From contig NZ_CP115300.1 of the NCBI RefSeq assembly GCF_027625935.1, forward strand, positions 5,952,001 through 6,016,000: a DNA stretch of 64,000 nucleotides, in the 5' to 3' direction. The stretch is from Streptomyces camelliae (GTDB taxonomy: Bacteria; Actinomycetota; Actinomycetes; Streptomycetales; Streptomycetaceae). Positions within the stretch are counted from its first letter, which is position 1; each line of letters opens with the position of its first letter. Of the stretch, positions 27,079 through 43,534 are shown piece by piece. Made by a program: the position numbers and the translations under genes. Under the pieces are notes generated by a model. That model was not told the origin of the DNA. It saw nothing but the letters and a program-made list of their open reading frames with translations, and ran no database searches.

Positions 27079-28287
27079 ATGGAGCTCAGGGCGGATCGTC
27101 TGGACGGTCTGGGGAAGTACTTCGGCCGGCTGACCGCCGAGGGAAAGATCCCCGGATATTCGGCCATGGTGTCGCAGCACGGGGAGGTGAAGTACGAATC
27201 CTCCGGCGGAATGGCGAACATAGCCGAGGGAATTCCCATGACGGCGGACAGCATCTTCCGCACCTGGTCGCTGAGCAAGCCGATGACCTCGGTGGCCTTC
27301 ATGAAGCTGGTCGAGGACGGCCTGGTGGGTCTGAACGACCCGCTGGCCGACTATCTGCCGGCCTTCCGTGACCAGCGCGTCTACCGCACCGGACTGCCCG
27401 CGGCCCCCGTCACCGAGGGCCTGCTGGAGCCGATCCGGATGTGGCACCTGCTGACCCACACCGCGGGCCTCGGCTACGGCGCCCACCAGTCGCACGCCGT
27501 GGACACCCTGTACGTGGGCCAGGGCTACACGGTGGAACCGCCGGCCGGCACCAGCCTCGCCGAGGCCGTCGACGCCTGGGCCTCCTTCCCGCTGCGCTTC
27601 CAGCCGGGCACGGGCTGGAACTACGGCGTGAGCACCGACGTCCTGGGCCGGGTCATCGAGGTGGTCTCCGGCAAGCGCCTCGACGTCTTCATGCGCGAGT
27701 CGTTCTTCGAGCCGCTGGGCCTGACGGACTCCGGCTTCCGCGTGGACCCGCGGAACAAGGACCGGTACGCCGAGATCTACAGCCCCACCGCCGACGGCGG
27801 CATCGAGCACAACCCGCAGGCGAGCGTCTACCCCACCGAGGAGCCGGTCTTCCTGTCGGGCGGCGGCGGCATCTACACCACGGTCGCCGACTACATGAAG
27901 TTCCTCGGCATGCTGGCGGCGGGCGGCAGGATCGCCGGCGGCTCCGACTTCTATCTGTCGCCGCTGACCGTCGAGTCGATCCGCGGCAACCATCTGCCGG
28001 GAAACATCACGCTGGGCGCCGGATTCGGCAACTGGGCCGTGCCCGCCGTCAACGAACTGATGCCCGGCGCCGGCTTCGGACTGGGCTTCATGACGGTCGA
28101 GTCACCGCGCGAGACCCATCTGCTGACGCGTCAGGGCGAGTACTTCTGGCTCTCGATGAGCAGCGCCAACTTCTTCATCGACCCCGCGTCGGGCGTCGCC
28201 GCCCTGGTCTCACCGCAGCTGTTCCCGTCCCGCACCCTGCCGGTCACCAATCGCCTGCGGCAGTTCGTCTACCAGGCCTGCCGATGA
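27079..28287 (+). CDS. Serine beta-lactamase-fold hydrolase/transferase (class C/EstB type)
   Basis: The protein has 402 residues. The catalytic S-x-x-K is SLSK at residues 64-67 and the second motif is WNYGVS near residue 183. A C-terminal glycine-rich strand is present. No signal peptide is visible, so it is cytoplasmic. That is unlike resistance enzymes and like EstB, LovD and other esterases or acyltransferases of this fold. LovD-type members move acyl groups from an ACP to a small-molecule acceptor. First in the operon and coupled to a thioesterase by ATGA, it may act on the finished acyl chain. That role is inference. Confidence 0.85.
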   Translation: MELRADRLDGLGKYFGRLTAEGKIPGYSAMVSQHGEVKYESSGGMANIAEGIPMTADSIFRTWSLSKPMTSVAFMKLVEDGLVGLNDPLADYLPAFRDQRVYRTGLPAAPVTEGLLEPIRMWHLLTHTAGLGYGAHQSHAVDTLYVGQGYTVEPPAGTSLAEAVDAWASFPLRFQPGTGWNYGVSTDVLGRVIEVVSGKRLDVFMRESFFEPLGLTDSGFRVDPRNKDRYAEIYSPTADGGIEHNPQASVYPTEEPVFLSGGGGIYTTVADYMKFLGMLAAGGRIAGGSDFYLSPLTVESIRGNHLPGNITLGAGFGNWAVPAVNELMPGAGFGLGFMTVESPRETHLLTRQGEYFWLSMSSANFFIDPASGVAALVSPQLFPSRTLPVTNRLRQFVYQACR

Positions 28288-28691
28288 ACACGAGATCACT
28301 GCCCGTGGAAATCCCGCTCAGATGGGGCGACATGGATTCCTACGGTCACGTCAACAACTGTGAAGTCGTCCGGATCATCGAAGAAGCCCGTATGAGATGG
28401 CTCATGACGAGCGGGGTCTTCGACGGGGAGACCGCGGTCGTCGCGGCCCATGAGATCGGATATCTGCGTCCGCTCCAGTACTCGCTCGACCCGGTCAACG
28501 TCGAGGTGTGGACCTCGAATGTCCGGCGGTCCAGCTTCGAATTCAATTTCCGGGTTCTGAACAACGCCCGGCAGGTGAGCGTCAAGGCCGTCAGCCGGAT
28601 GGTGATGTTCGACCTCGTCAAGCAGGAGGCGTACGCCATGAGTCCGCGGCTGCGCGAACATCTCGCCGCCGCCAGCGGAGAACGCCTGTAG
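28284..28691 (+). CDS. 4HBT-family acyl-CoA/ACP thioesterase
   Basis: This 135-residue single-hotdog protein has RWGDMDSYGHVNNCEVVRIIEEARMR. The DMDSYGHVNN block, with its active aspartate, matches 4-hydroxybenzoyl-CoA-type thioesterases. It overlaps the preceding gene by four bases. It probably releases or edits acyl chains made by the downstream synthase. A paralogue with the same motif (DMDAYGHVNN) is at 61682 in the housekeeping part of the window, giving a direct comparison. Confidence 0.87.
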   Translation: MNTRSLPVEIPLRWGDMDSYGHVNNCEVVRIIEEARMRWLMTSGVFDGETAVVAAHEIGYLRPLQYSLDPVNVEVWTSNVRRSSFEFNFRVLNNARQVSVKAVSRMVMFDLVKQEAYAMSPRLREHLAAASGERL

Positions 28692-28721
28692 CTCCCGTCC
28701 CCCCAAGAAAGGGAATCCTCC

Positions 28722-30149: not shown

Positions 30150-30150
30150 C

Positions 30151-31188
30151 ATGTTCATCGGCGACCTGTACCTCAACGGCTGCGCGGTGTCCTATCCCGC
30201 CACGCGTGTCCCGGTGGCCGAGGCGCTGGCGCAGGGGCTGGTCCGCGACTTCGACGAGACCATCGGCAACCCGGACGTACCCGTCTTCGACGAGAACGCA
30301 CCGGCCGCCGACATGGCCGTGGAGGCCCTGCGCCAGTCGCTCAAGTCGACCGGCACGGACGCCTCGGACGTGGACCTGCTGATCCACTGCGGATGGTGGC
30401 ACCAGGGCTTCGACATCTGGAGCGCGGCGCACTACGTCGCCCACCGGACCGGTGCCCTGGGCGCCGTACCGATGAATCTCTCGCAGGGGTGCAACGCCCC
30501 GATGGCGGCGCTCGAACTCACCGTCCGGGCGATGCGGGCCGACGACACCATCCGGACCGGCGCCGTCACGGCGGCCGACGCCATGCAGTTCCCGCAGGTC
30601 GACCGCTGGAACCTCAACTACGGCTGTGTGCACGGCGACGCGGGCACCGCGATGCTGGTCTCGCGAGAGCCGGCCGCGCGGGGCGCCTTCCGTATCGTCT
30701 CGATCGCCAGCAAGGCGGCCCCCGAGCTCGAAGAGATGAACCGGTCCGGATACACCGCGACCCCCGGCCCCGCCCTGCGGGACGGCGGCCGGGTGGATCT
30801 GAAGGCGGCCAAGAAGGCGTACCTCACGCAGTACGGCATGGACGGGTTCATGGGCCGCTCCCGTGAGGCCCTCACGGGGTGCGTGCGCCAGGCCCTGCAG
30901 GACGCCGGACTCGACGGCGGCGAGAGCCGTATCCGCGTCGTCTCGGTGCCCCGGCTCAGCGGAAAGATCTTCGAGACCGTCTACCGGGCCCAGCTCGCCC
31001 CGCTCTTCGGCGCCGAGAAGCTGGTCTGGTGGGGCGACCGCACGGCCCACCTGGGCGTCGCCGACGTCGGCGCCAACATCGAGGACACCCACGACGAACA
31101 CGCCCTGGAACCCGGCGACATCACCGTCGTGGTGAACGCGGGCGGCGGCTACACCTGGTCCTGCCTGGTGCTGGAGTCCGTCGCCTGA
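30151..31188 (+). CDS. KASIII-like (FabH-superfamily) ketosynthase/acyltransferase with altered triad
   Basis: The protein has 345 residues. The active cysteine is retained in LSQGCNAPMAAL (Cys114). The block that normally reads V-P-H-Q-A-N reads VPRLSGK, so the catalytic histidine appears replaced by arginine. The segment aligned with the Asn loop reads TAHLGVADVGAN, bringing in a histidine. The C-terminal GGGYTWS glycine motif is normal. FabH proper starts fatty-acid chains from acyl-CoA; altered members (DpsC, CerJ types) select starters or transfer acyl groups without decarboxylation. It precedes the ACP and probably handles starter or chain transfer. My alignment was made by eye. Confidence 0.83.
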   Translation: MFIGDLYLNGCAVSYPATRVPVAEALAQGLVRDFDETIGNPDVPVFDENAPAADMAVEALRQSLKSTGTDASDVDLLIHCGWWHQGFDIWSAAHYVAHRTGALGAVPMNLSQGCNAPMAALELTVRAMRADDTIRTGAVTAADAMQFPQVDRWNLNYGCVHGDAGTAMLVSREPAARGAFRIVSIASKAAPELEEMNRSGYTATPGPALRDGGRVDLKAAKKAYLTQYGMDGFMGRSREALTGCVRQALQDAGLDGGESRIRVVSVPRLSGKIFETVYRAQLAPLFGAEKLVWWGDRTAHLGVADVGANIEDTHDEHALEPGDITVVVNAGGGYTWSCLVLESVA

Positions 31189-31238: not shown

Positions 31239-31520
31239 ATGACCACTGCTTTCGTTTCCGACGAGACCATCCGCGAGACCACCCTCGACATCATCGTCGA
31301 CGAGCTGGAGCTGGACGCCGAGCCCGACGAGGTCGACGGCGCCGCCGACCTGATCGAGTTCTACGGCGCCGATTCCCTCGGCCTCATCCAGGTCCTGGCC
31401 CGCGTCAACAAGCAGCTGGGCATCCGCGTGCCCCGCGAGCAGGCCGTCGACCTGCGCACCGTCGAGCTCCTCGTGCAGCGCATCATCGACATCCGCGACG
31501 GCAAGGGCGGCGACCAGTGA
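31239..31520 (+). CDS. Acyl carrier protein
   Basis: The protein has 93 residues. The phosphopantetheine serine is in EFYGADSLGLIQVL (near residue 47), and the fold is a four-helix acidic ACP. The preceding residue pair A-D instead of L-D is a small variation. The leader is AAGGAAGAAG. It is followed by the ketosynthase with a GTGA overlap, giving fixed stoichiometric translation. It should be the carrier for the chain made by the synthase pair and is likely activated by the transferase at 42155. Confidence 0.93.
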   Translation: MTTAFVSDETIRETTLDIIVDELELDAEPDEVDGAADLIEFYGADSLGLIQVLARVNKQLGIRVPREQAVDLRTVELLVQRIIDIRDGKGGDQ

Positions 31521-32773
31521 CGCGCCCGGCACGCCGGGTCGTCGTCACCGGCATGGGATGTGTGAGCAGCATCGGCACCGGCGTCGAGGAGTTCACCGAG
31601 GGCATCAAGGCCGGTCTGAGCGGAGTCTCCGAGATCGCGTCCTTCGACGCCGGTGACTTCCCGGTCCGGCTGGCCGGCGAGGTGCAGGGCTTCGACCCCG
31701 CCGCGATCGTCCGCACCATCGACCTCGACGACTGGGGACGTACGGCCCACTTCGCGGCTGCCGCGGCCCGGCTCGCGATGGACGATTCCGGGCTCGAACT
31801 CGACGAGGAGACCCGGGCGACGGCGGGCGCGATCATCGGCACCACCAACGGTGAGGCACCCTCCGTCGACACCCTGACCCACCAGTGGCTGGACGGCGGC
31901 CCGAGCACCCTCTCCGCCGACGTGGCCCACCGGATCTCGGCCGGCAACATCGCCGCCGCCGCGGCCACCGAACTGGGCCTGTACGGCGAGACCGTCGTCA
32001 TCCCGACGGCGTGCTCGGCCGCCAACTACGCCATCGGCAGCGCCGCTGACAAGATCATCGCCGGTGAGGCCGACGTGATGGTGGCCGGCGGCGCGGACAG
32101 TGTGAACCGCTTCACCCACGCCGGCTTCCTCAGCCTCGGCGCGGTCGCCGACGGGGTGCCCCGGCCCTTCGACCAGGACCGTTCGGGCATCGTCACCGCC
32201 GAGGGCGGCGCGGTGCTGGTCCTGGAGGAACTGGAGCACGCCAAGCGGCGCGGCGCCCACATCTACGCCGAACTGCTCGGCTACGGGCTCAGCTGCGACG
32301 CCCACCACATCGTCCACCCGGACGCGGAGTCCATCGCCACCTGCATCCGGCGGGCGCACGCCAACTCGGGCATCGTCGCCGAGGACGTCGACTACATCTG
32401 CGCCCACGGCACCGGCACGCCGACCAACGACATCACCGAGGTCACGGCGACCCGGCTGGTGTTCGGCGACGAGCACCCGCCGATGAGCTCCATCAAGTCG
32501 ATGCTGGGCCACACGATGGGCGCGGCCAGCGGATTCGGCGCGATCGCCTGCTGCAAGGCGATCGAGGACGCCTTCCTGCCGCCCACCATCAACCTGCGCA
32601 CCGTCGACCCGGCGTTCGGCGAGGGCATCGACTTCGTCGGCAACGGCGCCAAGGGAGCCGCGGTACGCGTCGCGCAGAACCACGGCTTCGCCTTCGGCGG
32701 CAACAACGCCATCACCATTTTCGGCGCCTATGCCGACGGCGAGCCCGTCGGCGCGGGGGAGGGACCGCGATGA
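31517..32773 (+). CDS. Beta-ketoacyl-ACP synthase II / KS-alpha, catalytically complete
   Basis: The protein has 418 residues. All three active residues are present: cysteine in VIPTACSAANYAIG (Cys166), histidine in CAHGTGTPTND (near 306) and histidine in SMLGHTMGAASG (near 341). It extends ACP-bound chains by decarboxylative condensation with malonyl-ACP. It overlaps the ACP upstream and the cysteine-less partner downstream by four bases each, the usual gene order KS then partner in type II polyketide systems, although here the ACP comes first. Confidence 0.94.
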   Translation: MTRPARRVVVTGMGCVSSIGTGVEEFTEGIKAGLSGVSEIASFDAGDFPVRLAGEVQGFDPAAIVRTIDLDDWGRTAHFAAAAARLAMDDSGLELDEETRATAGAIIGTTNGEAPSVDTLTHQWLDGGPSTLSADVAHRISAGNIAAAAATELGLYGETVVIPTACSAANYAIGSAADKIIAGEADVMVAGGADSVNRFTHAGFLSLGAVADGVPRPFDQDRSGIVTAEGGAVLVLEELEHAKRRGAHIYAELLGYGLSCDAHHIVHPDAESIATCIRRAHANSGIVAEDVDYICAHGTGTPTNDITEVTATRLVFGDEHPPMSSIKSMLGHTMGAASGFGAIACCKAIEDAFLPPTINLRTVDPAFGEGIDFVGNGAKGAAVRVAQNHGFAFGGNNAITIFGAYADGEPVGAGEGPR

Positions 32774-33858
32774 GCGCGGCAGCAGAACTCCAGATCTCCG
32801 ATGTGTCGGTGCTGTCCGCGGCCGGTGTCGGCCTGGACGCCCTGCGCGCCCGGCTCCGTGAGCCGGGCGCGGCCCCCGGCGGCGCGCCCGCCGAGGACAT
32901 CACCCAGTACGAGGGCCTGCCCGGCCAGGTCGCGGCCGTACCGGACTTCACGATCACCGACTATGTGCCGCGCAAGGGCACGAAGAACCTCGACCGCACC
33001 ACGAAGCTCGGCCTCGCCGCCGCCACCCTGCTCAAGCGGTCGCTGGACGAGCGGGCCGAGATCGGCGAGGCGTCCTGGGCGTCCACCGGGATCGCCATGG
33101 GCACGGTCGTCGGCAGCCTGCGCAGCAGCGTCGACCTGGACATCGACATCATCGAGGGCAAGGGCACCGACCTCGTCAACCCGGCGGTCTTCCCCAACAC
33201 CACGATGAACTGCTGCGCCAGCCAGATAGCGATCTGGCACAGCTTCCGCGGCCCCAACTCCACCCTCGCCAACGGCACCGTCAGCGCCCTGTCCGCGCTG
33301 GCTTACGCGGCCCGGCTGATCCGCTGCGGTCACGCCGAGCGGATGCTCGTCGGCGGCGTCGAGGAGCTGTCGCCCCACACCGCGTGGGGGATCCGGCTGA
33401 AGAAGGAGGTCCAGGAGTCCGTCTTCATCGGCGAAGGCGCGGCCCTGGTCGCCCTCGAACCCGCCGGAGCGGACGCCTCGCCGGCCGTGGCCACGGTGAC
33501 CGCCTGCGAGGTGATGTTCGCCCCCGAGCGCACCCAGGCCGGCCGCACCGCCGCCCTGCGCCGCGCGGTCGACCGGGCGCGGGCGGCGGCCGAAGCCGCC
33601 GGCACCGGCATCGACCTGGTCCTGCCCGGCAACGTCGGAACGGCTCTGCAGACCGCCGAGGAGTCGGCCCTCGACCACGTCGACGCCGAACGCGTGGACG
33701 TGCGGGCCGCGGTCGGCGAGTGCGGCGGCGCCCTGGGCGCCATGCAGCTCGCCGCCGCGGTCGCCCTCGGCCGGCCCGGCACCGGCGTGCTGATCACAGG
33801 GGTCGACGAGTCCGGGGCGGTGGCCGCGGCCGTGCTCACCATCGAGGAGCACGCATGA
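32770..33858 (+). CDS. Ketosynthase-like partner without active site (KS-beta / chain-length-factor-like)
   Basis: The protein has 362 residues, shorter than a normal KS. The region equivalent to the active-site elbow reads GPNSTLANGTVSALSAL, with glycine (near 169) in place of cysteine. No HGTGTP or GHTxGA histidine motif is found; the matching C-terminal part reads LVLPGNVGTALQTAEE. Classical chain length factors carry glutamine there instead. It probably pairs with the ketosynthase at 31517 to form a heterodimer that sets chain length. Divergence is high, so the fold assignment rests on the middle of the protein. Confidence 0.82.
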   Translation: MSAAAELQISDVSVLSAAGVGLDALRARLREPGAAPGGAPAEDITQYEGLPGQVAAVPDFTITDYVPRKGTKNLDRTTKLGLAAATLLKRSLDERAEIGEASWASTGIAMGTVVGSLRSSVDLDIDIIEGKGTDLVNPAVFPNTTMNCCASQIAIWHSFRGPNSTLANGTVSALSALAYAARLIRCGHAERMLVGGVEELSPHTAWGIRLKKEVQESVFIGEGAALVALEPAGADASPAVATVTACEVMFAPERTQAGRTAALRRAVDRARAAAEAAGTGIDLVLPGNVGTALQTAEESALDHVDAERVDVRAAVGECGGALGAMQLAAAVALGRPGTGVLITGVDESGAVAAAVLTIEEHA

Positions 33859-34814
33859 GCCCCACCCCCGTGGCGACGGCGCCCGGCACCCGCGTCCGCC
33901 GGGAGCTGGTCCACCGCGCCAACGAACAGGAGATCCTGGTCTCCCCGCCCTGGCGGGCCGAGGACGGCGGCTACGGCGGTACGACGGTCACCACGGACCT
34001 CAGCCCCTACTACCGCGACCACCCGGGAACCCACTGGCTGGACGCCCTGCTGCTGATCGAGGCCTGCCGCCAGGCGGCGCTCAGCGCGGCACACGAGTTC
34101 GAGGACCTCTCGTCCGACATCGCGTTCTTCTTCAACTCGATCGACATGGAGATCACCGAGCCCGCACAACTGGCAGGCCTCGAAGGAGAGTTGACGATCC
34201 TGTCGGAGTTCGAGGAACTCCGGTTGCGCGGCGACGGCTCGCCGAAGCAGATCACGTACCACCAGCGCGGCACGGACGGCTCCGGCCGGACCGTGGTCCG
34301 TACGTCCATGGCGGTGCAGGGCCTGCCCAAGGGCCGCTACCCGGAGCTGCGGGCCTACCAGCGGGGCGGCTCGCCCGCCCCGACCACGGCGGCCCTGCGC
34401 TCCGCCGCCGGCCCCCGGACCGCCCTCAGCACACCGGCCAGCGTGGCCCGTACCGAGGCCGCCGACGTGGCGATCGCCGGCGTACGGCGTGAGGCGGGCA
34501 CCCTGGTCGCGGACCTGGCCCCGGACTTCGGCAACGGCAGCCTCTTCGACCACGACTACGACCACTATCCGGCGATGGTGCTCATCGAGGCCGGCCGGCA
34601 GCTGGCGCTGTCCGGCACGCCGGACCCCGCCGGGCACCTGGTCACCGCGGTGCGCGCCGGCTTCGACAACTTCGCCGAACTCGACGCGCCGATCCGGCTC
34701 GTGGCCCGGCCCGGCGAGCAGCGGGTCGACGTGAACTGCGTGCAGGGCGACCTGGTCGTCACCCGGATGTCGTTCGCACTGGCCCCCGTCCCCGGCGGAA
34801 AGAGGCAGGCGTGA
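33855..34814 (+). CDS. AfsA-family protein with two hotdog domains
   Basis: The protein has 319 residues. The two repeats of the A-factor biosynthesis family are visible: LVHRANEQEILVSPPW with LLLIEACRQAAL in the first half, and SLFDHDYDHYPAMVLIEAGRQLALS in the second. In Streptomyces griseus, AfsA condenses a beta-ketoacyl-ACP with dihydroxyacetone phosphate, the first step of gamma-butyrolactone signals. In this cluster it would draw its acyl chain from the adjoining synthase. It is coupled by four-base overlaps to KS-beta before and HAD hydrolase after. Some family members may have other roles, such as dehydration. Confidence 0.87.
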   Translation: MSPTPVATAPGTRVRRELVHRANEQEILVSPPWRAEDGGYGGTTVTTDLSPYYRDHPGTHWLDALLLIEACRQAALSAAHEFEDLSSDIAFFFNSIDMEITEPAQLAGLEGELTILSEFEELRLRGDGSPKQITYHQRGTDGSGRTVVRTSMAVQGLPKGRYPELRAYQRGGSPAPTTAALRSAAGPRTALSTPASVARTEAADVAIAGVRREAGTLVADLAPDFGNGSLFDHDYDHYPAMVLIEAGRQLALSGTPDPAGHLVTAVRAGFDNFAELDAPIRLVARPGEQRVDVNCVQGDLVVTRMSFALAPVPGGKRQA

Positions 34815-35551: not shown

Positions 35552-36261
35552 TGACCAGTCGATCGGTGTTCGTCACGGGAGCCAGCCGGGGTATCGGCGC
35601 GGCGATCGCGAGCGACCTGAACAAGCAGGGCTACCGCGTGGTCGGCACCGCCCGCACCACCCGGCCCGAACTCGAAGGCGTCTCCTTCGTCCAGTGCGAC
35701 GTGCGCGACCCGGAGTCGGTGCGCACGGCGGTGGAGCAGGCCCGTGAGATCGTCGGCGAGATCGACATCGTCGTCAACTGCGCCGGCATCATGAACGACG
35801 GCCTGCTGCTCACCCAGACCCAGGAGGGCGTCCAGGAGGTCCTCGACACCAACCTCACCGGCTCCATCAACGTGGCCCGCGAGACCGTGTCGGACATGCT
35901 GGCCAACAAGTGGGGCCGCTTCGTCTTCGTGTCCTCCATCGTCGCGCTGTGGGGATCGCCCGGCCAGGTCAACTACTCGGCCTCCAAGAGCGGCCTGATC
36001 GGTGTCGCCCGCTCCCTCGCCTGGGAGCTCGGCCGGGCCGGGATCACCTCCAACGTCGTACTGCCGGGCCTGATCGAGACCGACATGATCGCCGACCTGT
36101 CGGACCGGCGACGCAAGGAGATCGTCTCCCAGACGGCGCTGCGCCGCACCGGCCGGCCCGAGGAGGTGGCCGCACTGGTCTCCTTCCTCGTCTCCGAGGA
36201 CGCCGGCTTCATCACCGGCGCCTCGATCCCGATCGGCGGCGGCGTCGGCATGGGCGTCTGA
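35548..36261 (+). CDS. Short-chain dehydrogenase, beta-ketoacyl-ACP reductase type
   Basis: The protein has 237 residues with AAGGAG upstream. It has the Rossmann motif VTGASRGIGAAIA, the NAG motif (VNCAGIMNDG), serine in FVFVSSIVAL, and the catalytic Y-x-x-x-K in VNYSASKSGLIG. The C-terminus ends ITGASIPIGGG, as in FabG. It should reduce the beta-keto group after each condensation with NADPH; reduction of a butenolide is another option. It overlaps the HAD stop by four bases and the dehydratase start by one. Confidence 0.93.
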   Translation: MMTSRSVFVTGASRGIGAAIASDLNKQGYRVVGTARTTRPELEGVSFVQCDVRDPESVRTAVEQAREIVGEIDIVVNCAGIMNDGLLLTQTQEGVQEVLDTNLTGSINVARETVSDMLANKWGRFVFVSSIVALWGSPGQVNYSASKSGLIGVARSLAWELGRAGITSNVVLPGLIETDMIADLSDRRRKEIVSQTALRRTGRPEEVAALVSFLVSEDAGFITGASIPIGGGVGMGV

Positions 36262-36665
36262 TGGGCGCGGCGACGATTCCCGTACGGCCCGACGCGCGCC
36301 GGATGCCGCTGGTGGCCGTGGACAGCGTCGAAGCGGTCGACGGAGGCTTCATCGGCCGCAAGACGATCACCACCGACGACCCCTATCTCGCCGGGCACTT
36401 CCCGTCTCTGACGGTGTATCCGGGTGTGTTCCTCATCGAGAGCCTCCAGCAGATGCTCGAACTGCACCTCGACGGCGCCCTGGGCGGTATCGAGCTGGTG
36501 GAGCTCGCTTCGGCCCGGTTCAGCCGCCCGGCGCTGGCCGGCGACGAGGTGACGTTCGAGGTCGCGGTCAGCGGCGACCGTACGAGCCTGGTCACCAAGG
36601 CCACGTGCAGCAGCGGCGGCCGGCGCATCGCCCGCATCACCGCGACGTGGAGGAGCCGGACATGA
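36261..36665 (+). CDS. FabZ-like hotdog dehydratase, canonical histidine present
   Basis: The protein has 134 residues. The FabZ active-site segment reads AGHFPSLTVYPGVFLIESLQQML, with the catalytic histidine (H-F-P) and the glutamate in F-L-I-E-S. It would remove water from 3-hydroxyacyl-ACP to give a trans-2-enoyl chain. A second hotdog protein lacking the histidine follows with a four-base overlap, so the active enzyme may be a heterodimer. No enoyl reductase is found in the cluster, which favours retention of double bonds. Confidence 0.87.
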   Translation: MGAATIPVRPDARRMPLVAVDSVEAVDGGFIGRKTITTDDPYLAGHFPSLTVYPGVFLIESLQQMLELHLDGALGGIELVELASARFSRPALAGDEVTFEVAVSGDRTSLVTKATCSSGGRRIARITATWRSRT

Positions 36666-37162
36666 CCACCCCGACGCAGACCCAGGCCCAGGCCCTTTCC
36701 GACGGGCTGCCCGACCCCGGCGACCTGCTGCCCTACGGCTACCCGGCGCTCCAGGTCGACCGGATCGTCCGGCACACGCCGGGCGCCCTTGAGGCCACCA
36801 AGGCCGTGACCTACCACGAGCTGGACGCCCACCTGGGCGGCTCCCGGCCGGGCCGGTTCCCCGCCAGCCTCACCCTGGAGTCGTTCCTCCAGGCCTGCGG
36901 GCTGCTCCTGATGCGGGAGACCGACCCGGACGACCGTCAGCTGCTGATCTTCGGATCGGCGCGCGGCGTGCGGGTGCCCGACGCGGCGCGCGCCGGTGAA
37001 CTGCTCGTACACACCGTGGAGTTGGTCGACCGGGACGAGGAGACGGCCACGTTCGCCGGGGTCTCCCGGGCCGGGGACGGCCGTACCGTCCTCGAAGTCG
37101 AACGCGCCATCACCCTGCTGCGCCCCGCCGACTCGTTCGAGGGCTACGTCAGCGGCAGCTGA
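36662..37162 (+). CDS. FabZ-like hotdog protein without the catalytic histidine
   Basis: The protein has 166 residues. A FabA/FabZ-type start (LLPYGYPALQVDRIVRHTPG) leads to GGSRPGRFPASLTLESFLQACG. The position of the H-F-P histidine is arginine, while the glutamate that follows (L-E-S) is kept. It therefore has half of the usual dyad. Together with the histidine-bearing neighbour it may form a two-subunit dehydratase; such heterodimers are known in reducing type II polyketide systems. A role as isomerase cannot be excluded. Confidence 0.82.
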   Translation: MTTPTQTQAQALSDGLPDPGDLLPYGYPALQVDRIVRHTPGALEATKAVTYHELDAHLGGSRPGRFPASLTLESFLQACGLLLMRETDPDDRQLLIFGSARGVRVPDAARAGELLVHTVELVDRDEETATFAGVSRAGDGRTVLEVERAITLLRPADSFEGYVSGS

Positions 37163-37163
37163 G

Positions 37164-37241
37164 ATGTCCCACGATTCTCAAGATTCCCAACATTCTCAAG
37201 ATTCCCGAAGATTTCCGAAGATTTCCGAAACGGAGGATCCG
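37164..37241 (+). repeat. AT-rich repeat spacer between dehydratase and acyltransferase genes
   Basis: A motif of about 15 bases, ATTCTCAAGATTCCC, occurs twice and GAAGATTTCC twice, making a patch of unusually low GC inside the operon. It reads in frame from an ATG at 37164 into the acyltransferase as S-H-D-S-Q-D-S-Q-H-S-Q-D-S, so it could be an N-terminal tail. The ribosome-binding site at 37232 suggests it is untranslated leader or spacer. Confidence 0.7.
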
Positions 37242-38240
37242 GTGGTGTACCACTATGTCGTGACCGCCCCGGGACAGGGAGTCCAGCGGCCCGGGATGCT
37301 CGATCCCTGGCTGGACGCCGTCCCCGGGGCACCCGCCCTCGTCGCCGACTGGTCGCGGGCCGCGGGCTTCGACCTGGTCGAGGCCGGCCGTGACGAGGCC
37401 CTGCTGGCCGACACGGCCTACGCCCAGCCCCTGATCGTCGCCGCGTCCCTGCTGGCCCACCAACTGCTGCGCGACAGGCTGCCGTCGGCCGCCGATGAGG
37501 TGCTGTTCGCGGGCCACTCGGTCGGCGAGCTGGCCGCGGCGGCGGGCGCGGGCTACCTCAGCCCCCGGGACGCGGTCGCCCTCGCCCGGGTGCGCGGCGC
37601 GGCGATGTCGGCGGCGTGCGCGGTGGCGCCGACCGGCATGGCCGCGGTGATGCCGGCCAGGCGGAACCCCGCCTCGGACGAGGAGATCGTCGCCGCCGTC
37701 GGTACGGCAGGCCTTACGGTGGCCAACTTCAACGGCAGCCACCAGTTCGTGGCGGCGGGACCGGCCGACCGGGTCGAGGCCCTCGCCGACGCGCCGCCGC
37801 CGGGCATCCGGGTCTCGCCGCTCGCCGTCGCCGGCGCCTTCCACACCGAGGCCATGGCACCCGCGGTGGCACAGTTCGCCCGCGCCATCCAGGACGTACG
37901 GCTCGCGGAGCCCGCCTCGGCGCTGCTGGGCAACGGAGAGGGCGAGCCGGTCGCCGGCCCGGAGGACCTGCGGCGCCGGCTGATCACCCAGATCACCTCG
38001 CCGGTCCGCTGGGACCTGTGCGCGCAGGCGATAGCCCGCCGGGCCCCCGGCGCCCTGCACATCGAGCTGGCACCGGCGGGACCGCTCACCCGCCTGCTCC
38101 AGCGGGCCCGCCCCGAGGCGCGCGCCGTCGCGCTGGGCGTCCCGGAAGACCTCGACCGCGTACTGGCCGAGGCCGCCGGGAGCGGCCTGCCCGCGGTGGC
38201 GGGCATGCCGGAGGAGCGCGAGCTGGTGGGCGCGCGATGA
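37242..38240 (+). CDS. Malonyl-CoA:ACP acyltransferase
   Basis: The catalytic domain starts HYVVTAPGQGVQRPGM. The active serine is in FAGHSVGELAAA and the histidine in VAGAFHTEAM, the FabD dyad. ITSPVRWDLCAQAI near residue 265 supports the assignment. It loads malonyl units from CoA onto the cluster ACP. The start at GTG 37242 (332 residues) was chosen because CGGAGGATCCG immediately before it is identical to the 11 bases before the carboxylase ATG at 38277. An ATG at 37164 would add 26 residues from the repeat spacer. Confidence 0.9.
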   Translation: MVYHYVVTAPGQGVQRPGMLDPWLDAVPGAPALVADWSRAAGFDLVEAGRDEALLADTAYAQPLIVAASLLAHQLLRDRLPSAADEVLFAGHSVGELAAAAGAGYLSPRDAVALARVRGAAMSAACAVAPTGMAAVMPARRNPASDEEIVAAVGTAGLTVANFNGSHQFVAAGPADRVEALADAPPPGIRVSPLAVAGAFHTEAMAPAVAQFARAIQDVRLAEPASALLGNGEGEPVAGPEDLRRRLITQITSPVRWDLCAQAIARRAPGALHIELAPAGPLTRLLQRARPEARAVALGVPEDLDRVLAEAAGSGLPAVAGMPEERELVGAR

Positions 38241-38276: not shown

Positions 38277-39821
38277 ATGCGTAGTGGTGTCGAGGAGCTG
38301 GCGAGTCTCCGGCGCGAGATCGCCGAGGGCCCGGACCCGGCCGCCACCCAACGACAGCGTGACAAAGGCAAGTTGACGGCCCGGGAGCGGATCGAGCTGC
38401 TCCTGGACCCGGGGTCCTTCCAGGAGGTCGAGCAGCTGCGCCGGCACCGGGCGACCGGGTTCGGCCTGGAGGCCAAGAAGCCGCACACGGACGGTGTGAT
38501 CACCGGCTGGGGCACGGTGGAAGGCCGTACGGTCTTCGTCTACGCCCACGACTTCCGCATCTTCGGCGGCGCGCTCGGCGAGGCCCACGCCGAGAAGATC
38601 CACAAGATCATGGACATGGCCATCGCGGCCGGCGCGCCCCTGGTCTCCCTGAACGACGGTGCCGGCGCCCGCATCCAGGAAGGCGTCACCGCCCTCGCCG
38701 GCTACGGCGGCATCTTCCAGCGCAACACCAAGGCGTCCGGCGTGATCCCGCAGATCAGCGTGATGCTGGGCCCGTGCGCGGGCGGCGCGGCGTACAGCCC
38801 GGCCCTCACGGACTTCGTGTTCATGGTCCGCGAGACCTCGCAGATGTTCATCACCGGCCCGGACGTGGTCAAGGCCGTGACCGGCGAGGAGATCAGCCAG
38901 AACGGCCTGGGCGGCGCCGACGTGCACGCCGAGACGTCCGGCGTGTGCCACTTCGCGTACGACGACGAGGAGACCTGCCTCGCCGAGGTCCGCTACCTCC
39001 TCTCGCTGCTCCCGCAGAACAACCGCGAGAGGCCCCCGGCGACGGCGCCCGACGACCCGGCCGACCGGCGCTGCGAGGAACTCCTCGACCTGGTCCCCGC
39101 CGACGGCAACCGCCCCTACGACATGCGCGCGGTGATCGAGTCGCTCGTCGACGACGGCGACTTTCTGGAGATCCACGAGCGCTGGGCCGGCAACGTCATC
39201 GTCGCCCTGGCCCGCCTCGACGGCCAGACCGTCGGCATCGTGGCCAACCAGCCCCAGTCGCTGGCCGGCGTCCTCGACATCAACGCGTCCGAGAAGGCCG
39301 CCCGCTTCGTCCAGATGTGCGACGCCTTCAACATCCCGCTCGTGACACTCCTCGACGTCCCCGGCTTCCTGCCCGGCGTCGACCAGGAACACGGCGGCAT
39401 CATCCGGCACGGCGCCAAGCTGCTGTACGCGTACTGCAACGCCACCGTCCCCCGCATCCAGCTCATCCTGCGCAAGGCGTACGGCGGTGCCTACATCGTC
39501 ATGGACTCCCGTTCCGTGGGCGCCGACCTGTCGTACGCCTGGCCTACCAACGAGATCGCGGTGATGGGCGCCGAGGGCGCCGCGAACGTCATCTTCCGGC
39601 GCCAGATCGCCGGCGCCGACGACCCCGAGGCGATGCGGGCCCGCATGGTCAAGGAGTACAAGGCCGAGCTGATGCACCCGTACTACGCGGCCGAGCGGGG
39701 CCTGGTGGACGACGTGATCGACCCCGCCGAGACCCGCGAGGTGCTGATCCGCTCCCTGCAGATGCTGCGGACCAAGCACGCCGAGCTGCCCTCGCGCAAG
39801 CACGGCAACCCGCCCCAGTGA
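38277..39821 (+). CDS. Acyl-CoA carboxylase carboxyltransferase (beta) subunit
   Basis: The protein has 514 residues. The two crotonase-like halves are visible: the first has LTARERIELLLDPGSF, DGAGARIQEG and LGPCAGGAAYSPAL; the second has VDDGDFLEIHERWAGN, DVPGFLPGVDQEHGGIIRHG and LRKAYGGAYIVM. This is the AccB/PccB type used by actinobacteria to make malonyl- or methylmalonyl-CoA with a biotinylated alpha chain and an epsilon subunit. Both partners follow. Dedicated to the cluster, it should provide extender units; the acyl-CoA preference is not predictable by eye. Confidence 0.94.
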   Translation: MRSGVEELASLRREIAEGPDPAATQRQRDKGKLTARERIELLLDPGSFQEVEQLRRHRATGFGLEAKKPHTDGVITGWGTVEGRTVFVYAHDFRIFGGALGEAHAEKIHKIMDMAIAAGAPLVSLNDGAGARIQEGVTALAGYGGIFQRNTKASGVIPQISVMLGPCAGGAAYSPALTDFVFMVRETSQMFITGPDVVKAVTGEEISQNGLGGADVHAETSGVCHFAYDDEETCLAEVRYLLSLLPQNNRERPPATAPDDPADRRCEELLDLVPADGNRPYDMRAVIESLVDDGDFLEIHERWAGNVIVALARLDGQTVGIVANQPQSLAGVLDINASEKAARFVQMCDAFNIPLVTLLDVPGFLPGVDQEHGGIIRHGAKLLYAYCNATVPRIQLILRKAYGGAYIVMDSRSVGADLSYAWPTNEIAVMGAEGAANVIFRRQIAGADDPEAMRARMVKEYKAELMHPYYAAERGLVDDVIDPAETREVLIRSLQMLRTKHAELPSRKHGNPPQ

Positions 39822-39864
39822 CCCCACCAGTCCTGCCCGCCCCACCCGAACGGAGCTGATCCAG

Positions 39865-40074
39865 GTGACCACAGCCATCGAGCGCACCGCCCCGGCCCCC
39901 CTGGTCCGCGTGGAACGCGGCCTGCCCTCCGACGACGAACTCGCCGCCCTGACCGTGGCGTTGCTCTCCAGGGCCATGATCGCCGGCCCGGGCACCCCCG
40001 CCGCCCCGCCCGTCCCCCTGTGGGACCGCCCGGAGCGCCACGCTTCGTACCGCCCCATCGGCTGGCGGCGCTAG
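39865..40074 (+). CDS. Acyl-CoA carboxylase epsilon subunit
   Basis: This 69-residue protein starts at GTG. It has the pattern [21 protein letters not shown] at the N-terminus, a proline/alanine linker and a C-terminal W-x-R-P-like end ([18 protein letters not shown]), as in the small AccE/PccE subunits that stabilise the actinobacterial carboxylase. It lies 43 bases after the beta subunit. Confidence 0.9.
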
Positions 40075-40083
40075 CGCGGGGGA

Positions 40084-40112
40084 GACGAGTACATCCCGGA
40101 CGAGTACATCCC
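40084..40112 (+). repeat. Tandem 14-bp repeat upstream of the carboxylase alpha gene
   Basis: GACGAGTACATCCC occurs at 40084-40097 and 40099-40112, just before the ribosome-binding site of the small reading frame at 40124. Confidence 0.9.
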
Positions 40113-40123
40113 AAGGGAGCGTC

Positions 40124-40291
40124 ATGGAGGGGGAGTTGGAGGAGATGGACATGGCCGGAACACACCGTGGCGACGCGACGCGCGGCGGAACGCGGAACCA
40201 GCCCACGGAGCGGCCCTCGCCGCCGCGTGCGCTGCTGGCAGGAGAGGAGGACGGTGGCGATGAGCCGCACATCCAGCGCGGGATCGACTGA
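40124..40291 (+). CDS. Possible 55-residue small protein, unknown
   Basis: An ATG preceded by AGGGAG opens a frame of 55 codons ([12 protein letters not shown]...), acidic at the start and rich in arginine, glycine and proline. It ends inside the carboxylase alpha gene, overlapping its start by 32 bases in another frame. It may be a real small protein or only a leader that couples translation of the alpha subunit. Nothing in the sequence is recognised, and the composition is not strongly protein-like. Confidence 0.3.
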
Positions 40292-42158
40292 GACCGCTGA
40301 AGCCACTCTCATCGGCAGCGGAGGCGCGGTGCGCAAAGTACTGATCGCCAATCGCGGCGAGATCGCGGTCCGGGTCGCGCGGGCCTGCCGGGACGCCGGG
40401 ATCGCGAGCGTGGCCGTATACGCCGACCCGGACCGGGACGCGCTGCACGTCCGCGCGGCCGACGAGGCGTTCGCCCTGGGCGGTGACACACCGGCGACCA
40501 GCTACCTGGACATCGAGAAGGTCCTGAACGCTGCGCGTGAGTCCGGTGCGGACGCGATCCACCCCGGCTACGGCTTCCTGTCGGAGAATGCCGACTTCGC
40601 GCAGGCGGTGCTGGACGCGGGTCTGGTCTGGATCGGTCCGCCGCCGCAGGCGATCCGTGACCTGGGTGACAAGGTCGCCGCCCGGCACATCGCCCAGCGT
40701 GCCGGCGCCCCGCTGGTGGCCGGTACCCCGGACCCCGTCTCGGGTGCCGAGGAGGTCGTGGCGTTCGCCGAGCAGCACGGCCTGCCGATCGCGATCAAGG
40801 CGGCCTTCGGTGGTGGCGGGCGGGGCCTGAAGGTCGCCCGCACCCTGGAGGAGGTCCCGGAGCTGTACGAGTCGGCGGTCCGCGAGGCCGTGGCGGCCTT
40901 CGGCCGGGGCGAGTGCTTCGTGGAGCGCTACCTGGACCGTCCCCGGCACGTGGAGACCCAGTGCCTGGCGGACAAGCACGGCAACGTGGTCGTCGTATCG
41001 ACGCGTGACTGCTCGCTGCAGCGCCGCCACCAGAAGCTGGTCGAGGAGGCCCCGGCGCCGTTCCTGTCCGAGGAGCAGGTCGCCGAGCTGTACCGCGCCT
41101 CGAAGGCCATCCTGCGGGAGGCCGGCTACGAGGGTGCGGGCACCTGTGAGTTCCTGGTCGGGCAGGACGGCACGATCTCCTTCCTGGAGGTCAACACCCG
41201 CCTGCAGGTGGAGCACCCGGTGACCGAGGAGGTCGCGGGCATCGACCTGGTCCGCGAGATGTTCCGCATCGCCGACGGCGAGGAACTGGGCTACGACGAC
41301 CCGCCCTTGCGCGGCCACTCCTTCGAGTTCCGCATCAACGGCGAGGACCCGGGCCGCAACTTCCTCCCCGCCCCCGGCACGGTGACGAGGTTCGACGCCC
41401 CCTCGGGCCCCGGTGTCCGCCTGGACGCGGGCGTGGAGTCCGGCAGCGTGATCGGCCCGGCGTGGGACTCCCTGCTGGCCAAGCTGATCGTGACCGGCCG
41501 TACCCGCGAGGAGGCCCTTCAGCGGGCCGCCCGCGCCCTGGACGAGTTCCAGGTCGAGGGCATGGCCACCGCCATCCCCTTCCACCGCGCGGTCGTGAAG
41601 GACCCGGCGTTCGCCCCCGAACTCACCGGCTCGGACGGCCCCTTCACGGTCCACACCCGCTGGATCGAGACCGAGTTCGTCAACGAGATCAAGCCCTTCG
41701 TCCCCGCGGCGGAGGGCGGGGAGGAAGGGCCGGACGGCCGCGAGACCCTGGCGGTCGAGGTCGGCGGCAGGCGGATCGAGGTCCGGGTCCCCGCCTCGCT
41801 GGGTGTGCCGCGGGCGCGTACGGCACCGGGCATGCCGTGGGGGCGCACGGCGCCGGGCGTGGCAGGGGCGCGTACGGCGCTCGGTGGCGCGCGTCAGGCC
41901 AGGCGCCGCCCCGGCGGCCGCGGTACTGGCTCCGCCGTCTCGGGCGACACGCTCACCTCGCCGATGCAGGGCACGATCGTCAAGGTCGCCGTGGAGGAGG
42001 GCGCGACGGTCGCCGCCGGTGACCTCGTCGTCGTCCTGGAGGCGATGAAGATGGAGCAGCCCATCACCGCCCACAAGGCAGGCACGGTCGCCGACCTCCT
42101 GGTCCGGCCCGGCGCGGCACTCACCGCCGACGCCGCGATCTGCGCGATCAGGGCGTGA
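40260..42158 (+). CDS. Acyl-CoA carboxylase biotinylated alpha subunit (biotin carboxylase + BCCP)
   Basis: The protein has 632 residues from an ATG nine bases after GGAGG. Biotin carboxylase motifs are [34 protein letters not shown], the ATP-grasp glycine loop [13 protein letters not shown], and [18 protein letters not shown] linker of about 45 residues with repeated R-T-A-P-G follows. The biotinyl domain ends with [14 protein letters not shown], the lysine being the biotin site. It carboxylates its own biotin using ATP and bicarbonate and passes the carboxyl to the beta subunit. The repeated linker appears expanded compared with the compact linker I expect. Confidence 0.95.
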
Positions 42159-42949
42159 CGGCGATGACGACGTACCAGACGTATCAACAGACTGCTGTAC
42201 TGCTGCGCCCGTCGCCGACCGGACCTCAACTCCCCGATGATGGCGCGGGATTGATGGCCTCACTGCTCCCGCCCCGGGTGGCGGCGGCGGAGGTGTTCGG
42301 ACACGGGGACGAGGAGTGGTGGGGAGCGCTGCTGCCCGCCGAGGCGCGGCTCATGGCGGGCGCGGGGGCCAAACGGCGGCGGGACTTCGCCGGGGTGCGG
42401 GTGTGCGCCCGGCGCGCGCTGCGGGTGCTCGGCTTCGGGCCGGTGCCCGTGCTGCCGGGTCCGCGGGGAGAACCGCGCTGGCCTGCGGGTGTCGTGGGCT
42501 CGATGACGCACTGCGCGGGCTACCGGGCGGCGGTGGTGGCCCGCCCCGAGACGGGCCTGGCCGGACTCGGCATCGACGCCGAGCCGCACGCCCCGCTCTC
42601 CCCGGATGTGCTGGACATGGTCGCGAGCCCCGCCGAGCGCGCGCATGTGGCGATGCTGGCCGACGGCTGGCCGCGGGTGCACTGGGGACGCGTGCTGTTC
42701 TGTGTGAAGGAGGCGGTCTTCAAGGCGTGGTACCCGCTGGCCCACACCGAACTCGGCTTCCTGGAGGCGGAGGTGGCGTTCCAGGTGAACGGCGACGGCT
42801 CCTCCGGTGGTGTCACGGCCGAGGTGCGGCGGCCGGGCCCGTTCACCGTGGTCTCGGGCCACTGGCGGGTCGCCGATGGCGTGATCGCGACCGCGGTGGT
42901 GGCGGAGGCGGCCGCGGCCTGGAAATCTGCCCAGCCACCGGCGGCCTGA
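42155..42949 (+). CDS. Sfp-type 4'-phosphopantetheinyl transferase
   Basis: The protein has 264 residues from a GTG overlapping the carboxylase stop; an ATG three codons later is an alternative. Family blocks are [25 protein letters not shown] with the magnesium-binding aspartate and glutamate, and [13 protein letters not shown] with the catalytic W/F-x-x-K-E-x-x-x-K. It transfers the phosphopantetheine arm from CoA to the serine of carrier proteins. Being cluster-encoded, it probably activates the ACP at 31239. Confidence 0.93.
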
Positions 42950-43012
42950 TCCGCAGCGCCCTGTGCCCATCCTGTCTCTTTTTCAACCAACGACGTCCAG
43001 GAGGAAGAAACG

Positions 43013-43534
43013 ATGCGTCTCGCCGATGCCCGTGTGGAGTGCGTGACCGAGATCGCGGCCGCGCCGCAGCGGGTGTGGGAGCTGGTCTCGGACATCTCCA
43101 CCTCGGCCCGGCACAGCCCGGAACTGCAGGAGGTGGAGTGGCTCGACGGGGCCGAGGGCCCCGCGGTCGGCGCCTGCTTCTCCGGCCGCAACCGCAACAG
43201 CGGGCTGGGGGAGTGGCGCACGGTCAGCCGGGTCGCGCGGATGGCGGAGCAGCGCGTCTTCGAGTGGGAGGTCGTCCACTACAACGACCGCCGCCACGGC
43301 GAACCGCTGGCCGTCTGGACGTACACCCTGGAACCGCTCACCGACGGCTCCGGCACCCGCCTGCGACACGGCATGCGCTTCGGCTCGGCCCACGGCCCCA
43401 TGCACGAGGTCGTCGAGCGGTACCCGGACCGCGAGGAACAGATCATCGACGGCCGCCTCGCCCTGCTGCGCACGGGCATCGAGCGGACCCTGGCCGGGGT
43501 GAAGGCGGAGGCGGAGGGAGTTCCGCTGCCCTGA
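43013..43534 (+). CDS. SRPBCC-fold cyclase/aromatase-like protein
   Basis: The protein has 173 residues with CCAGGAGGAAG before the ATG. The Bet v1-like start VECVTEIAAAPQRVWELVSDIST, followed by RHSPELQEVEWLDG and GMRFGSAHGPMHEVVERYP, is that of polyketide cyclase/dehydrase family proteins. Such proteins fold or dehydrate nascent polyketides, or bind hydrophobic ligands. It is the last gene before a strong terminator, so it closes the operon. Whether an aromatic ring is formed cannot be decided. Confidence 0.85.
   Translation: MRLADARVECVTEIAAAPQRVWELVSDISTSARHSPELQEVEWLDGAEGPAVGACFSGRNRNSGLGEWRTVSRVARMAEQRVFEWEVVHYNDRRHGEPLAVWTYTLEPLTDGSGTRLRHGMRFGSAHGPMHEVVERYPDREEQIIDGRLALLRTGIERTLAGVKAEAEGVPLP

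What the first reader, a model, noticed from the sequence alone, without database searches (positions are those of the whole stretch)
27079..43534. A self-contained reducing type II polyketide/fatty-acid system with unusual partners
Seen: seventeen co-directional genes, most with 4-base overlaps, ending at a strong hairpin. They encode one ACP, one complete KS, one cysteine-less KS partner, KR, two hotdog dehydratase-like proteins (one without histidine), AT, a KASIII-like protein, a complete acyl-CoA carboxylase, a PPTase, an exporter and release-type enzymes. Known: such sets build polyene chains in reducing type II systems (ishigamide-type). Inferred: no enoyl reductase means an unsaturated chain. 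The added AfsA family protein, HAD hydrolase, beta-lactamase-fold protein and SRPBCC protein make a combination I do not recognise.
Basis: partly seen in the sequence, partly recalled or inferred. Interest (0 to 1): 0.8.

Follow-up and report, generated by a model that had tools for sequence, protein, structure and literature searches.

The report
Type II polyketide cluster with AfsA release
A Streptomyces gene cluster pairs small, separate polyketide-building enzymes with a relative of the hormone-making enzyme AfsA, which probably cuts the finished chain loose by joining it to a three-carbon sugar phosphate to give a butenolide; relatives in other actinomycetes suggest an undescribed family of such pathways.

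Summary
The genes described are there: 18 co-directional genes at 27079-43534, 9 of 17 junctions overlapping, then a strong hairpin. KS-alpha and KS-beta are closest among solved structures to the pair 6kxd (ishigamide type), so the chain builder looks like a reducing type II PKS. The His-less second dehydratase, AT, carboxylase and PPTase are ordinary equipment. The unusual core is the AfsA-HAD-KR cassette. AfsA keeps 26 of 33 columns invariant in eight hormone-type ScbA proteins, including the E..RQ and FDH..DH residues, but groups outside that clade, with AfsA proteins that sit beside KS genes. In two relatives ordinary ScbA/ScbR genes lie next to the same cluster, so this AfsA is unlikely to be the hormone enzyme there. 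Most likely it releases a beta-ketoacyl-ACP by condensing it with DHAP, as AfsA domains do in gladiostatin/gladiofungin (modular PKS), and the HAD protein removes phosphate. Ten open-access paper searches showed no AfsA release from a type II PKS. Close KS-beta orthologues are rare (3 of 295 sampled genus genomes, own included), but AfsA beside a type II KS recurs in other genera. The cluster probably starts upstream near 22341. Product, chain unsaturation and every chemical step are unproven.

The parts
22341..23084 (+). LuxR-type regulator, probable upstream edge of the cluster
   Evidence: PF00196; kept beside the cluster in L043/L096 (65%) and L095 (88%)
23352..24302 (-). UbiA prenyltransferase, accessory
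   Evidence: PF01040 98.6 bits; 83% in L095, partial at the edges of L039, L040 and L043; not found in L041, L042, L044, L065-L068
24326..25942 (+). FAD-dependent monooxygenase
   Evidence: PF01494+PF21274; syntenic in L039, L040; a distant relative (27.5-31.5% by tblastn; Pfam FAD_binding_3 checked for L041 only) lies inside the operon in L041-L044
26375..26908 (-). isochorismatase-like hydrolase, possible member
   Evidence: PF00857; in L039, L040/L095 and, 43%, beside AfsA in L071
27079..28287 (+). serine hydrolase of beta-lactamase fold, esterase-like
   Evidence: PF00144; best PDB 7pp3 esterase; SxxK at residue 64
28284..28691 (+). 4HBT hotdog thioesterase
   Evidence: PF13279/PF03061
28722..30149 (+). 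MFS exporter (DHA2/EmrB type)
   Evidence: PF07690; TIGR00711 185 bits, below its cut-off of 230.2
30151..31188 (+). KASIII-like protein of DpsC/ChlB3/CerJ type
   Evidence: best PDB 4xs7 (daunorubicin PKS, DpsC), also ChlB3 and CerJ; Cys kept in 6 of 6 aligned
31239..31520 (+). acyl carrier protein
   Evidence: PF00550; DSL at residue 45
31517..32773 (+). KS-alpha
   Evidence: PF00109/PF02801; best PDB 6kxd_A
32770..33858 (+). KS-beta (chain-length-factor-like, no active Cys)
   Evidence: PF00109; best PDB 6kxd_B
33855..34814 (+). AfsA double-hotdog protein, proposed phosphorylated-butenolide synthase and chain-release enzyme
   Evidence: PF03756 93.5 bits; conserved residues; tree; model pLDDT 90.8
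34811..35551 (+). HAD hydrolase, proposed butenolide-phosphate phosphatase
   Evidence: PF00702; D25, S135, K168, D192, D193 in 18 of 18 aligned
35551..36261 (+). FabG-like ketoreductase
   Evidence: PF13561/PF00106; FabG models; tree
36261..36665 (+). dehydratase subunit DH1 (His present)
   Evidence: PF07977; alignment
36662..37162 (+). dehydratase-like subunit DH2 (His absent)
   Evidence: TIGR01750 E 4.5e-10, below cut-off; PF07977 below cut-off; alignment
37164..38240 (+). acyltransferase, probably malonyl-specific
   Evidence: PF00698; mdcH and FabD models below cut-off; GHSVGE and GAFH
38277..39821 (+). acyl-CoA carboxylase beta subunit, probably acetyl-CoA type
   Evidence: best PDB 7w5u 'Acetyl-CoA carboxylase complex, beta-chain', over all 514 aa
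39865..40074 (+). acyl-CoA carboxylase epsilon subunit
   Evidence: PF13822
40260..42158 (+). biotin carboxylase/BCCP alpha subunit
   Evidence: PF02786, PF00289, PF02785, PF00364; EAMKM at 594
42155..42949 (+). 4'-phosphopantetheinyl transferase
   Evidence: PF17837, PF01648
43013..43534 (+). SRPBCC (Polyketide_cyc2) protein
   Evidence: PF10604
43535..43604 (+). terminator-like hairpin
   Evidence: folds at -40.6 kcal/mol

Best explanation
A reducing type II polyketide pathway whose chain is released by a free-standing AfsA enzyme. Acetyl-CoA carboxylase, AT, PPTase and ACP supply malonyl-ACP; KS-alpha/KS-beta extend; KR and a DH1/DH2 pair (probably a heterodimer) reduce and dehydrate; when the chain is a beta-ketoacyl-ACP, AfsA condenses it with DHAP to a phosphorylated butenolide, and the HAD protein removes the phosphate. 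An FAD monooxygenase and, in some strains, a UbiA prenyltransferase, with the hydrolases and SRPBCC protein, finish the molecule, which the MFS protein exports. Shown here: gene content, conserved residues, linkage, phylogeny. Inferred: every chemical step.
For: KS pair nearest to 6kxd A/B. Of 33 columns invariant in 8 hormone-type ScbA rows AfsA keeps 26, among them E69 R72 Q73, F231 D232 H233, D236 H237, E245 R248 Q249; 32 columns are invariant over 22 aligned relatives. It falls outside the hormone-type clade (8 rows, 100/98), among AfsA of KS clusters. KS-beta and AfsA orthologue lists share 19 contig lengths (36 and 41 rows entered of 77 and 50 hits). AfsA-HAD-KR stay together at 35-52% identity in L046, L048 and L061. 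4 of 4 class-wide AfsA matches beyond own (394 genomes, E <= 1e-25) lie beside KS-alpha-like sequence. ScbA/ScbR genes stand separately beside the cluster in L066 and L067. AfsA domains release PKS chains with DHAP in vitro (gladiostatin, PMC7756379) and are needed for gladiofungin (PMC7756420).
Against: No chemistry. AfsA loses 7 of the 33 hormone-invariant columns, one of them H to N at residue 227, scores 133.6 bits against 200 for the NCBIfam ScbA/BarX model, and the type A stem is long (1.19 changes per column), so its substrate may have changed. The HAD has no Asp at D+2: Arg in 8 and Gly in 10 of 18 rows. L069 and L070 hold AfsA and the KS pair but no HAD was found within the 20 kb fetched. 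The KR may act on the butenolide rather than the chain. The double-hotdog model is nearest to PKS dehydratases and acyl-ACP thioesterases, which does not favour condensation. NCBI also names the AfsA of L048 'ScbA/BarX family'. The odds were lowered from 0.5.
Confidence: 0.47

Rival explanations
1. Polyene pathway of ishigamide type in which the AfsA protein acts only as a further dehydratase or thioesterase, with no DHAP.
For: Its model is a double hotdog nearest to PKS dehydratases and acyl-ACP thioesterases; long stem in the tree; 7 of 33 hormone-invariant columns changed; a 4HBT thioesterase and an esterase are available for release.
Against: The E..RQ and FDH..DH residues are kept; a HAD hydrolase follows AfsA in all six type A loci examined (L039-L044); the cassette also occurs in clusters where no DH was detected (L046, L048, L061).
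Confidence: 0.18
2. AfsA condenses the beta-ketoacyl-ACP with another sugar or sugar phosphate, such as a pentulose, as proposed for methylenomycin (MmyD) and syringolide (AvrD).
For: Precedent in PMC12593393 (abstract and passages); flavin monooxygenase present as in mmy; diverged AfsA.
Against: That paper calls MmyD AvrD-like and its main text does not hold the term AfsA. MmyD and AvrD sequences were not compared here.
Confidence: 0.14
3. The AfsA makes a gamma-butyrolactone or butenolide signal, so the cluster is a hormone pathway with its own chain builder.
For: PF03756 family; ScbR-type receptor genes over the NF041196 cut-off beside the clusters of L041/L066, L042/L067 and L048.
Against: L066 and L067 hold separate hormone-clade ScbA genes next to those receptors; the window's AfsA is outside that clade; its genome has 4 ScbR-type genes over the cut-off, none within 3 Mb of the cluster on the chromosome; exporter, monooxygenase and 18 genes suggest an end product.
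Confidence: 0.12
4. Cispentacin/coronafacate-like pathway forming a five-membered carbocycle.
For: KS-alpha, ACP, DH1 and DH2 match Amc models weakly (185.4, 26.3, 25.3, 20 bits).
Against: All far below the cut-offs (325, 80, 140, 140); no Amc model is listed for KS-beta; no aminotransferase or adenylating loader was recognised among the 18 genes.
Confidence: 0.03

Closest known systems
Ishigamide-type highly reducing type II PKS (6kxd; I recall it as Iga11/Iga12)
   Same: KS-alpha/KS-beta pair, ACP, KR, dehydratase(s); best structural match for both KS proteins
   Different: Has AfsA-HAD; KR not in the group of the L063/L064 KRs; KS-alpha groups with the AfsA-linked L061 (97/95), outside a weakly supported set of 17 unlinked KSs (83/66)
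Gladiofungin/gladiostatin PKS (PMC7756420, PMC7756379)
   Same: AfsA-type (PBS) release and phosphatase candidates
   Different: There the AfsA domain is fused to a modular trans-AT PKS in Burkholderia; here AfsA is free-standing with a type II PKS
SAB/SRB/methylenomycin-furan hormone cassettes
   Same: AfsA family protein + phosphatase + ketoreductase (SabA/SabP/SabD named in PMC7756379)
   Different: Window AfsA is outside the sampled hormone-type clade; its HAD has no significant BLASTP match (best E 1.1) to the HADs beside ScbA in L049 and L059, which are 58% identical to each other; a dedicated PKS is present. SabP/MmfP sequences were not at hand
Cispentacin (Amc) type II PKS-like system
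   Same: Small KS, KS-like partner, ACP and hotdog proteins
   Different: All Amc model scores below cut-off; no AmcC/AmcH-type enzymes recognised among the 18 genes

Membership tests
Highly reducing type II PKS | KS-alpha with Cys-His-His and ACP with Ser | tested here: met
   PTACSAAN/AHGTGT/GHTMGA, DSL
Highly reducing type II PKS | Cys-less KS-beta akin to a known CLF | tested here: met
   6kxd_B best hit
Highly reducing type II PKS | dehydratase in the cluster | tested here: met
   DH1 with His in 6 of 6; DH1-DH2 relatives also together in L063 and L064
Highly reducing type II PKS | dedicated chain ketoreductase | tested here: inconclusive
   One KR, grouped with a presumed FabG and cassette KRs (91/88)
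Highly reducing type II PKS | polyene product | not testable with these tools
   needs chemistry
AfsA phosphorylated-butenolide synthases (Pfam AfsA) | two AfsA hotdog domains | tested here: met
   PF03756, 2 stretches; double-hotdog model
AfsA phosphorylated-butenolide synthases (Pfam AfsA) | residues invariant in hormone-type members | tested here: inconclusive
   26 of 33 kept, including E..RQ twice and FDH..DH; 7 changed, including H to N at 227
AfsA phosphorylated-butenolide synthases (Pfam AfsA) | condensation of DHAP with a beta-ketoacyl thioester | not testable with these tools
   needs enzyme assay
ScbA/BarX hormone synthases (NF041195) | curated score of 200 bits | tested here: not met
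   133.6 bits
ScbA/BarX hormone synthases (NF041195) | place in the hormone-type clade | tested here: not met
   8 hormone-type rows on one side of a 100/98 branch without it
Cispentacin-type (Amc) | Amc model cut-offs | tested here: not met
   KS-alpha 185.4 of 325, ACP 26.3 of 80, DH1 25.3 and DH2 20 of 140
Gladiofungin-type PKS | AfsA domain fused to a modular PKS | tested here: not met
   319-aa free-standing protein

The most novel reading that the evidence does not exclude
An undescribed family of type II PKS pathways, found in Streptomyces, Streptacidiphilus, Nocardiopsis and in four genera of one unnamed family (one of which might be Nocardiopsis), in which a free-standing AfsA enzyme, usually with a partner HAD phosphatase and KR, releases the chain as a butenolide. 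The window is the dehydratase-bearing branch (with a close relative, L061, in which no DH was found), making an unsaturated, possibly prenylated and oxidised acyl-butenolide. AfsA evolved here into a general PKS release enzyme separate from its hormone role.
Probability: 0.43. Interest if true: 0.75.

Novelty: new variant of a known kind. Interest (0 to 1): 0.6.

Why it matters
AfsA is known as the enzyme that makes Streptomyces hormones and, since 2020, as a rare release domain in modular PKSs. A free-standing AfsA that releases chains from a type II PKS would join two fields, provide a separable release enzyme that is easy to test in vitro, and point to a set of unexplored butenolide pathways. 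It would also mean that AfsA genes in genomes cannot be read automatically as hormone synthases.

Tried and rejected
Considered and set aside: cispentacin-like carbocycle (scores far below cut-offs); AfsA as hormone enzyme (separate ScbA/ScbR genes in L066/L067); the beta-lactamase-fold protein as a resistance gene (esterases are the best match; the class C model scores 37.9 of 415).

Led nowhere: neighbourhoods of two HAD relatives (L050 Nonomuraea, L051 Embleya); one search lists no Nonomuraea or Embleya record among its AfsA matches, and of each locus I scanned five proteins with Pfam. The structural search gave only a general double-hotdog match. The 10 paper searches cover open-access PMC only, and three listings were cut (20 of 31, 20 of 186, 20 of 44 shown); none of the papers shown describes an AfsA-terminated type II PKS by its listing. 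I opened six papers, as abstract and/or passages. Of the two papers that hold 'chain length factor' and 'AfsA', PMC8588249 (passages) uses scbA-afsA as overexpressed genes; PMC12839944 I saw only in the listing. No biosynthetic-cluster database could be queried, so a characterised match there is not excluded.

Rows dropped or doubtful: the L046 KS-beta row was out of frame and is not used. G295/G243 and G299/G112 give the same matches and are counted once; L045 repeats L044. Rows labelled 'no AfsA' rest (no AfsA near that KS at E <= 1e-6); L037 and L062 are on contigs of genomes G114 and G120, which hold AfsA on other contigs, one (L075) at a contig end, so they may be mislabelled. In 'hormone-type' and 'linked' are my labels; ScbA labels rest on NCBI names or on neighbouring ScbR genes, not on chemistry.
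Full report
What is there. The stretch 27079-43534 holds 18 genes on the + strand: an esterase-like serine hydrolase, a 4HBT thioesterase, an MFS exporter, a KASIII-like protein, ACP, KS-alpha, KS-beta, AfsA, HAD hydrolase, KR, DH1, DH2, AT, acyl-CoA carboxylase beta, epsilon and alpha subunits, PPTase and an SRPBCC protein. Seven of 17 junctions overlap by 4 bases and two by 1 base; the 70 nt behind the last gene fold at -40.6 kcal/mol. The genome has 9.6 Mb in 3 contigs and appears to be of the same species as Streptomyces sp. CoH27 (L039 lies in G295, which gives the same matches as G243, marked 'same species').

The chain builder. KS-alpha's best solved relative is 6kxd_A (E 4.5e-107) and KS-beta's is 6kxd_B (E 3.4e-26); I recall 6kxd as the ishigamide Iga11-Iga12 pair, and the tool names both chains only 'Ketosynthase'. 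KS-beta has no active cysteine. DH1 has the FabZ His and Glu in 6 of 6 aligned; DH2 lacks the His in 6 of 6 but keeps a Glu. Since FabZ-type sites lie between two subunits (recalled), a DH1/DH2 heterodimer is plausible; relatives of both DHs sit together in L063 and L064, two reducing type II clusters in which no AfsA was found. AT has GHSVGE and GAFH and matches mdcH/FabD models below cut-off, which suggests malonyl. The carboxylase beta subunit matches an acetyl-CoA carboxylase beta chain over all 514 residues (7w5u). So the set can probably make its own malonyl-ACP. The KASIII-like protein is of DpsC/ChlB3/CerJ type (4xs7 is named daunorubicin PKS there, DpsC is recalled) and was not found in the held stretches of L044, L046 and L061, so it is not core.

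The cassette. AfsA, HAD and KR follow one another in all six type A loci (L039-L044) and, at 35-52% identity, in L046, L048 and L061, although those three show no dehydratase in the stretches held (for L061 about 40 kb with L088). L069 and L070 have AfsA, KS-alpha, KS-beta and KR, but no HAD was found in the 20 kb fetched. In the AfsA tree (25 rows) 8 hormone-type ScbA rows form one side of a 100/98 branch; the window's AfsA lies on the other side, in a 6-row clade (100/100) next to L061 (93/89). In the KS-alpha tree (37 rows) the window's clade and L061 also group (97/95), and AfsA-linked rows are clustered: 4 changes against 11.3 in shuffles, 0 of 500 as low. Seventeen of 20 rows labelled unlinked form one group (weak, 83/66); two of the other three may be mislabelled because their genomes hold AfsA on other contigs. 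The KR groups with a presumed FabG and cassette KRs (91/88), apart from the KRs of L063/L064. My reading is that an AfsA-linked type II PKS is old and that the window's branch carries dehydratases and an AT in addition.

How common. The scan of genome contigs with AfsA gave 9 loci, five of them with AfsA at 68-98%, two (one strain) at 54%, two Nocardiopsis at 35%. KS-beta matches at E <= 1e-10 occur in 106 of 295 genus genomes, but only 3 (own, a same-species genome, G112) reach 70% identity. I gave 27 of those 106 genomes to an AfsA search: 8 matches at E <= 1e-25 in 7 genomes; of the 8 surroundings fetched, 3 hold a KS-alpha/KS-beta pair (L061, L069, L070), 3 a single more distant KS (L071, L072, L074), 2 no KS in what could be fetched (L073, L075). 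Class-wide, 5 of 394 genomes match (own plus 4, in 4 genera of one other family), and the 4 others all lie beside KS-alpha-like sequence, twice only a cut-off end of it plus KS-beta; in two of the four short loci (L091, L093) no HAD was seen.

Hormone or end product? In L066 (Streptomyces sp. NBC_01549) two hormone-clade ScbA and three ScbR-like genes, and in L067 (Streptacidiphilus melanogenes) one ScbA and two ScbR-like genes, lie just upstream of the cluster, in addition to the cluster's AfsA (three of these five receptors pass the curated cut-off, the other two score 131.8 and 118.5 of 150). So an ordinary signal probably controls the cluster there, and the cluster's AfsA does something else. 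This is not uniform: no ScbR above the cut-off lies near the cluster in the window, L040, L043 or L044, and the L043/L044 contigs are short (38 and 26-32 kb).

Mechanism. Of 33 columns invariant in the 8 hormone-type rows, the window's AfsA keeps 26, among them E69 R72 Q73, F231 D232 H233, D236 H237 and E245 R248 Q249; it changes 7, of which H to N at residue 227 may matter. Across 22 relatives, hormone-type ones among them by name, 32 columns are invariant. The AlphaFold model is a confident double hotdog (pLDDT 90.8), nearest to PKS dehydratases and acyl-ACP thioesterases, which fits but does not choose. AfsA domains release chains with DHAP in gladiostatin in vitro (PMC7756379, abstract and passages) and deletion of the domain abolishes gladiofungin (PMC7756420, abstract and passages); the gladiostatin paper also names SabA, SabP and SabD (AfsA-type synthase, phosphatase, ketoreductase) for SAB hormones. 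The HAD protein keeps D25, S135, K168, D192 and D193 in 18 of 18 rows, but D+2 is Arg in 8 and Gly in 10 of them, never Asp; some HAD phosphatases lack it too (recalled), so activity needs a test. The HADs beside ScbA in L049 and L059 are 58% identical to each other and show no significant BLASTP match to the window's (best E 1.1).

Edges. LuxR (22341), UbiA (23352-24302) and an FAD monooxygenase (24326) probably belong: LuxR and UbiA are kept beside the cluster in L095 and L043/L096, UbiA also at the edges of L039 and L040. The isochorismatase-like gene is kept in L039, L040/L095 and, at 43%, beside AfsA in L071. A relative of the monooxygenase accompanies all six type A loci, but in L041-L044 it is only 27.5-31.5% identical to the window's. 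If UbiA takes part, the product may be prenylated; UbiA was not found in the stretches held of L041, L042 and L044.

Rivals and limits. Rivals are listed with their evidence. Methylenomycin's MmyD is proposed to join a pentulose (PMC12593393, abstract and passages), so DHAP is not the only candidate. Unsaturation is not settled: cispentacin recruits FabI from fatty acid synthesis (PMC10698177, abstract and passages). In a marine bacterium an afsA gene is needed for killing competitors, and the authors leave open whether its product is an antimicrobial or a signal (PMC7426152, abstract and passages). Not in print: ten searches of open-access PMC papers (some listings cut) showed no description of AfsA release from a type II PKS; subscription papers and MIBiG were not searched.

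Noticed in passing
L071, L072, L074: AfsA-HAD-KR genes next to a single distant KS (30-35% to KS-alpha), an FAD monooxygenase relative and, in L071, an isochorismatase: a second kind of AfsA cluster.
   Followed up: partly
window 34811-35551 and relatives: The HAD proteins of 18 aligned rows share the motif W.D.(R/G)GV.TPP with no Asp at D+2 (Arg in 8, Gly in 10) and are unlike the HADs beside ScbA in L049 and L059.
   Followed up: partly
window AfsA residue 227: A His invariant in 8 hormone-type ScbA rows is Asn here and, in the alignment, in the AfsA of L040-L044, L046 and L048.
   Followed up: no
window 46362-46986: An ORF that looks by eye like the C-terminal end of a tyrosine integrase lies close to a tRNA-Arg (46913-46986); Pfam found no family for it. 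Possible remnant of an integrated element.
   Followed up: no
L044 and L045: Two contigs of Streptomyces sp. CBMA156 carry matching copies of the cluster; a real duplication or an assembly artefact.
   Followed up: no
P0035 and P0119: Diverged relatives of KS-beta (55%) and AfsA (41%) occur in Actinomyces, far from soil streptomycetes.
   Followed up: no
G000:C2:42019-44000 and 62689-69805: The host's second contig carries a KS pair and ScbA/ScbR-type genes about 20 kb apart, perhaps another signal-controlled cluster.
   Followed up: no
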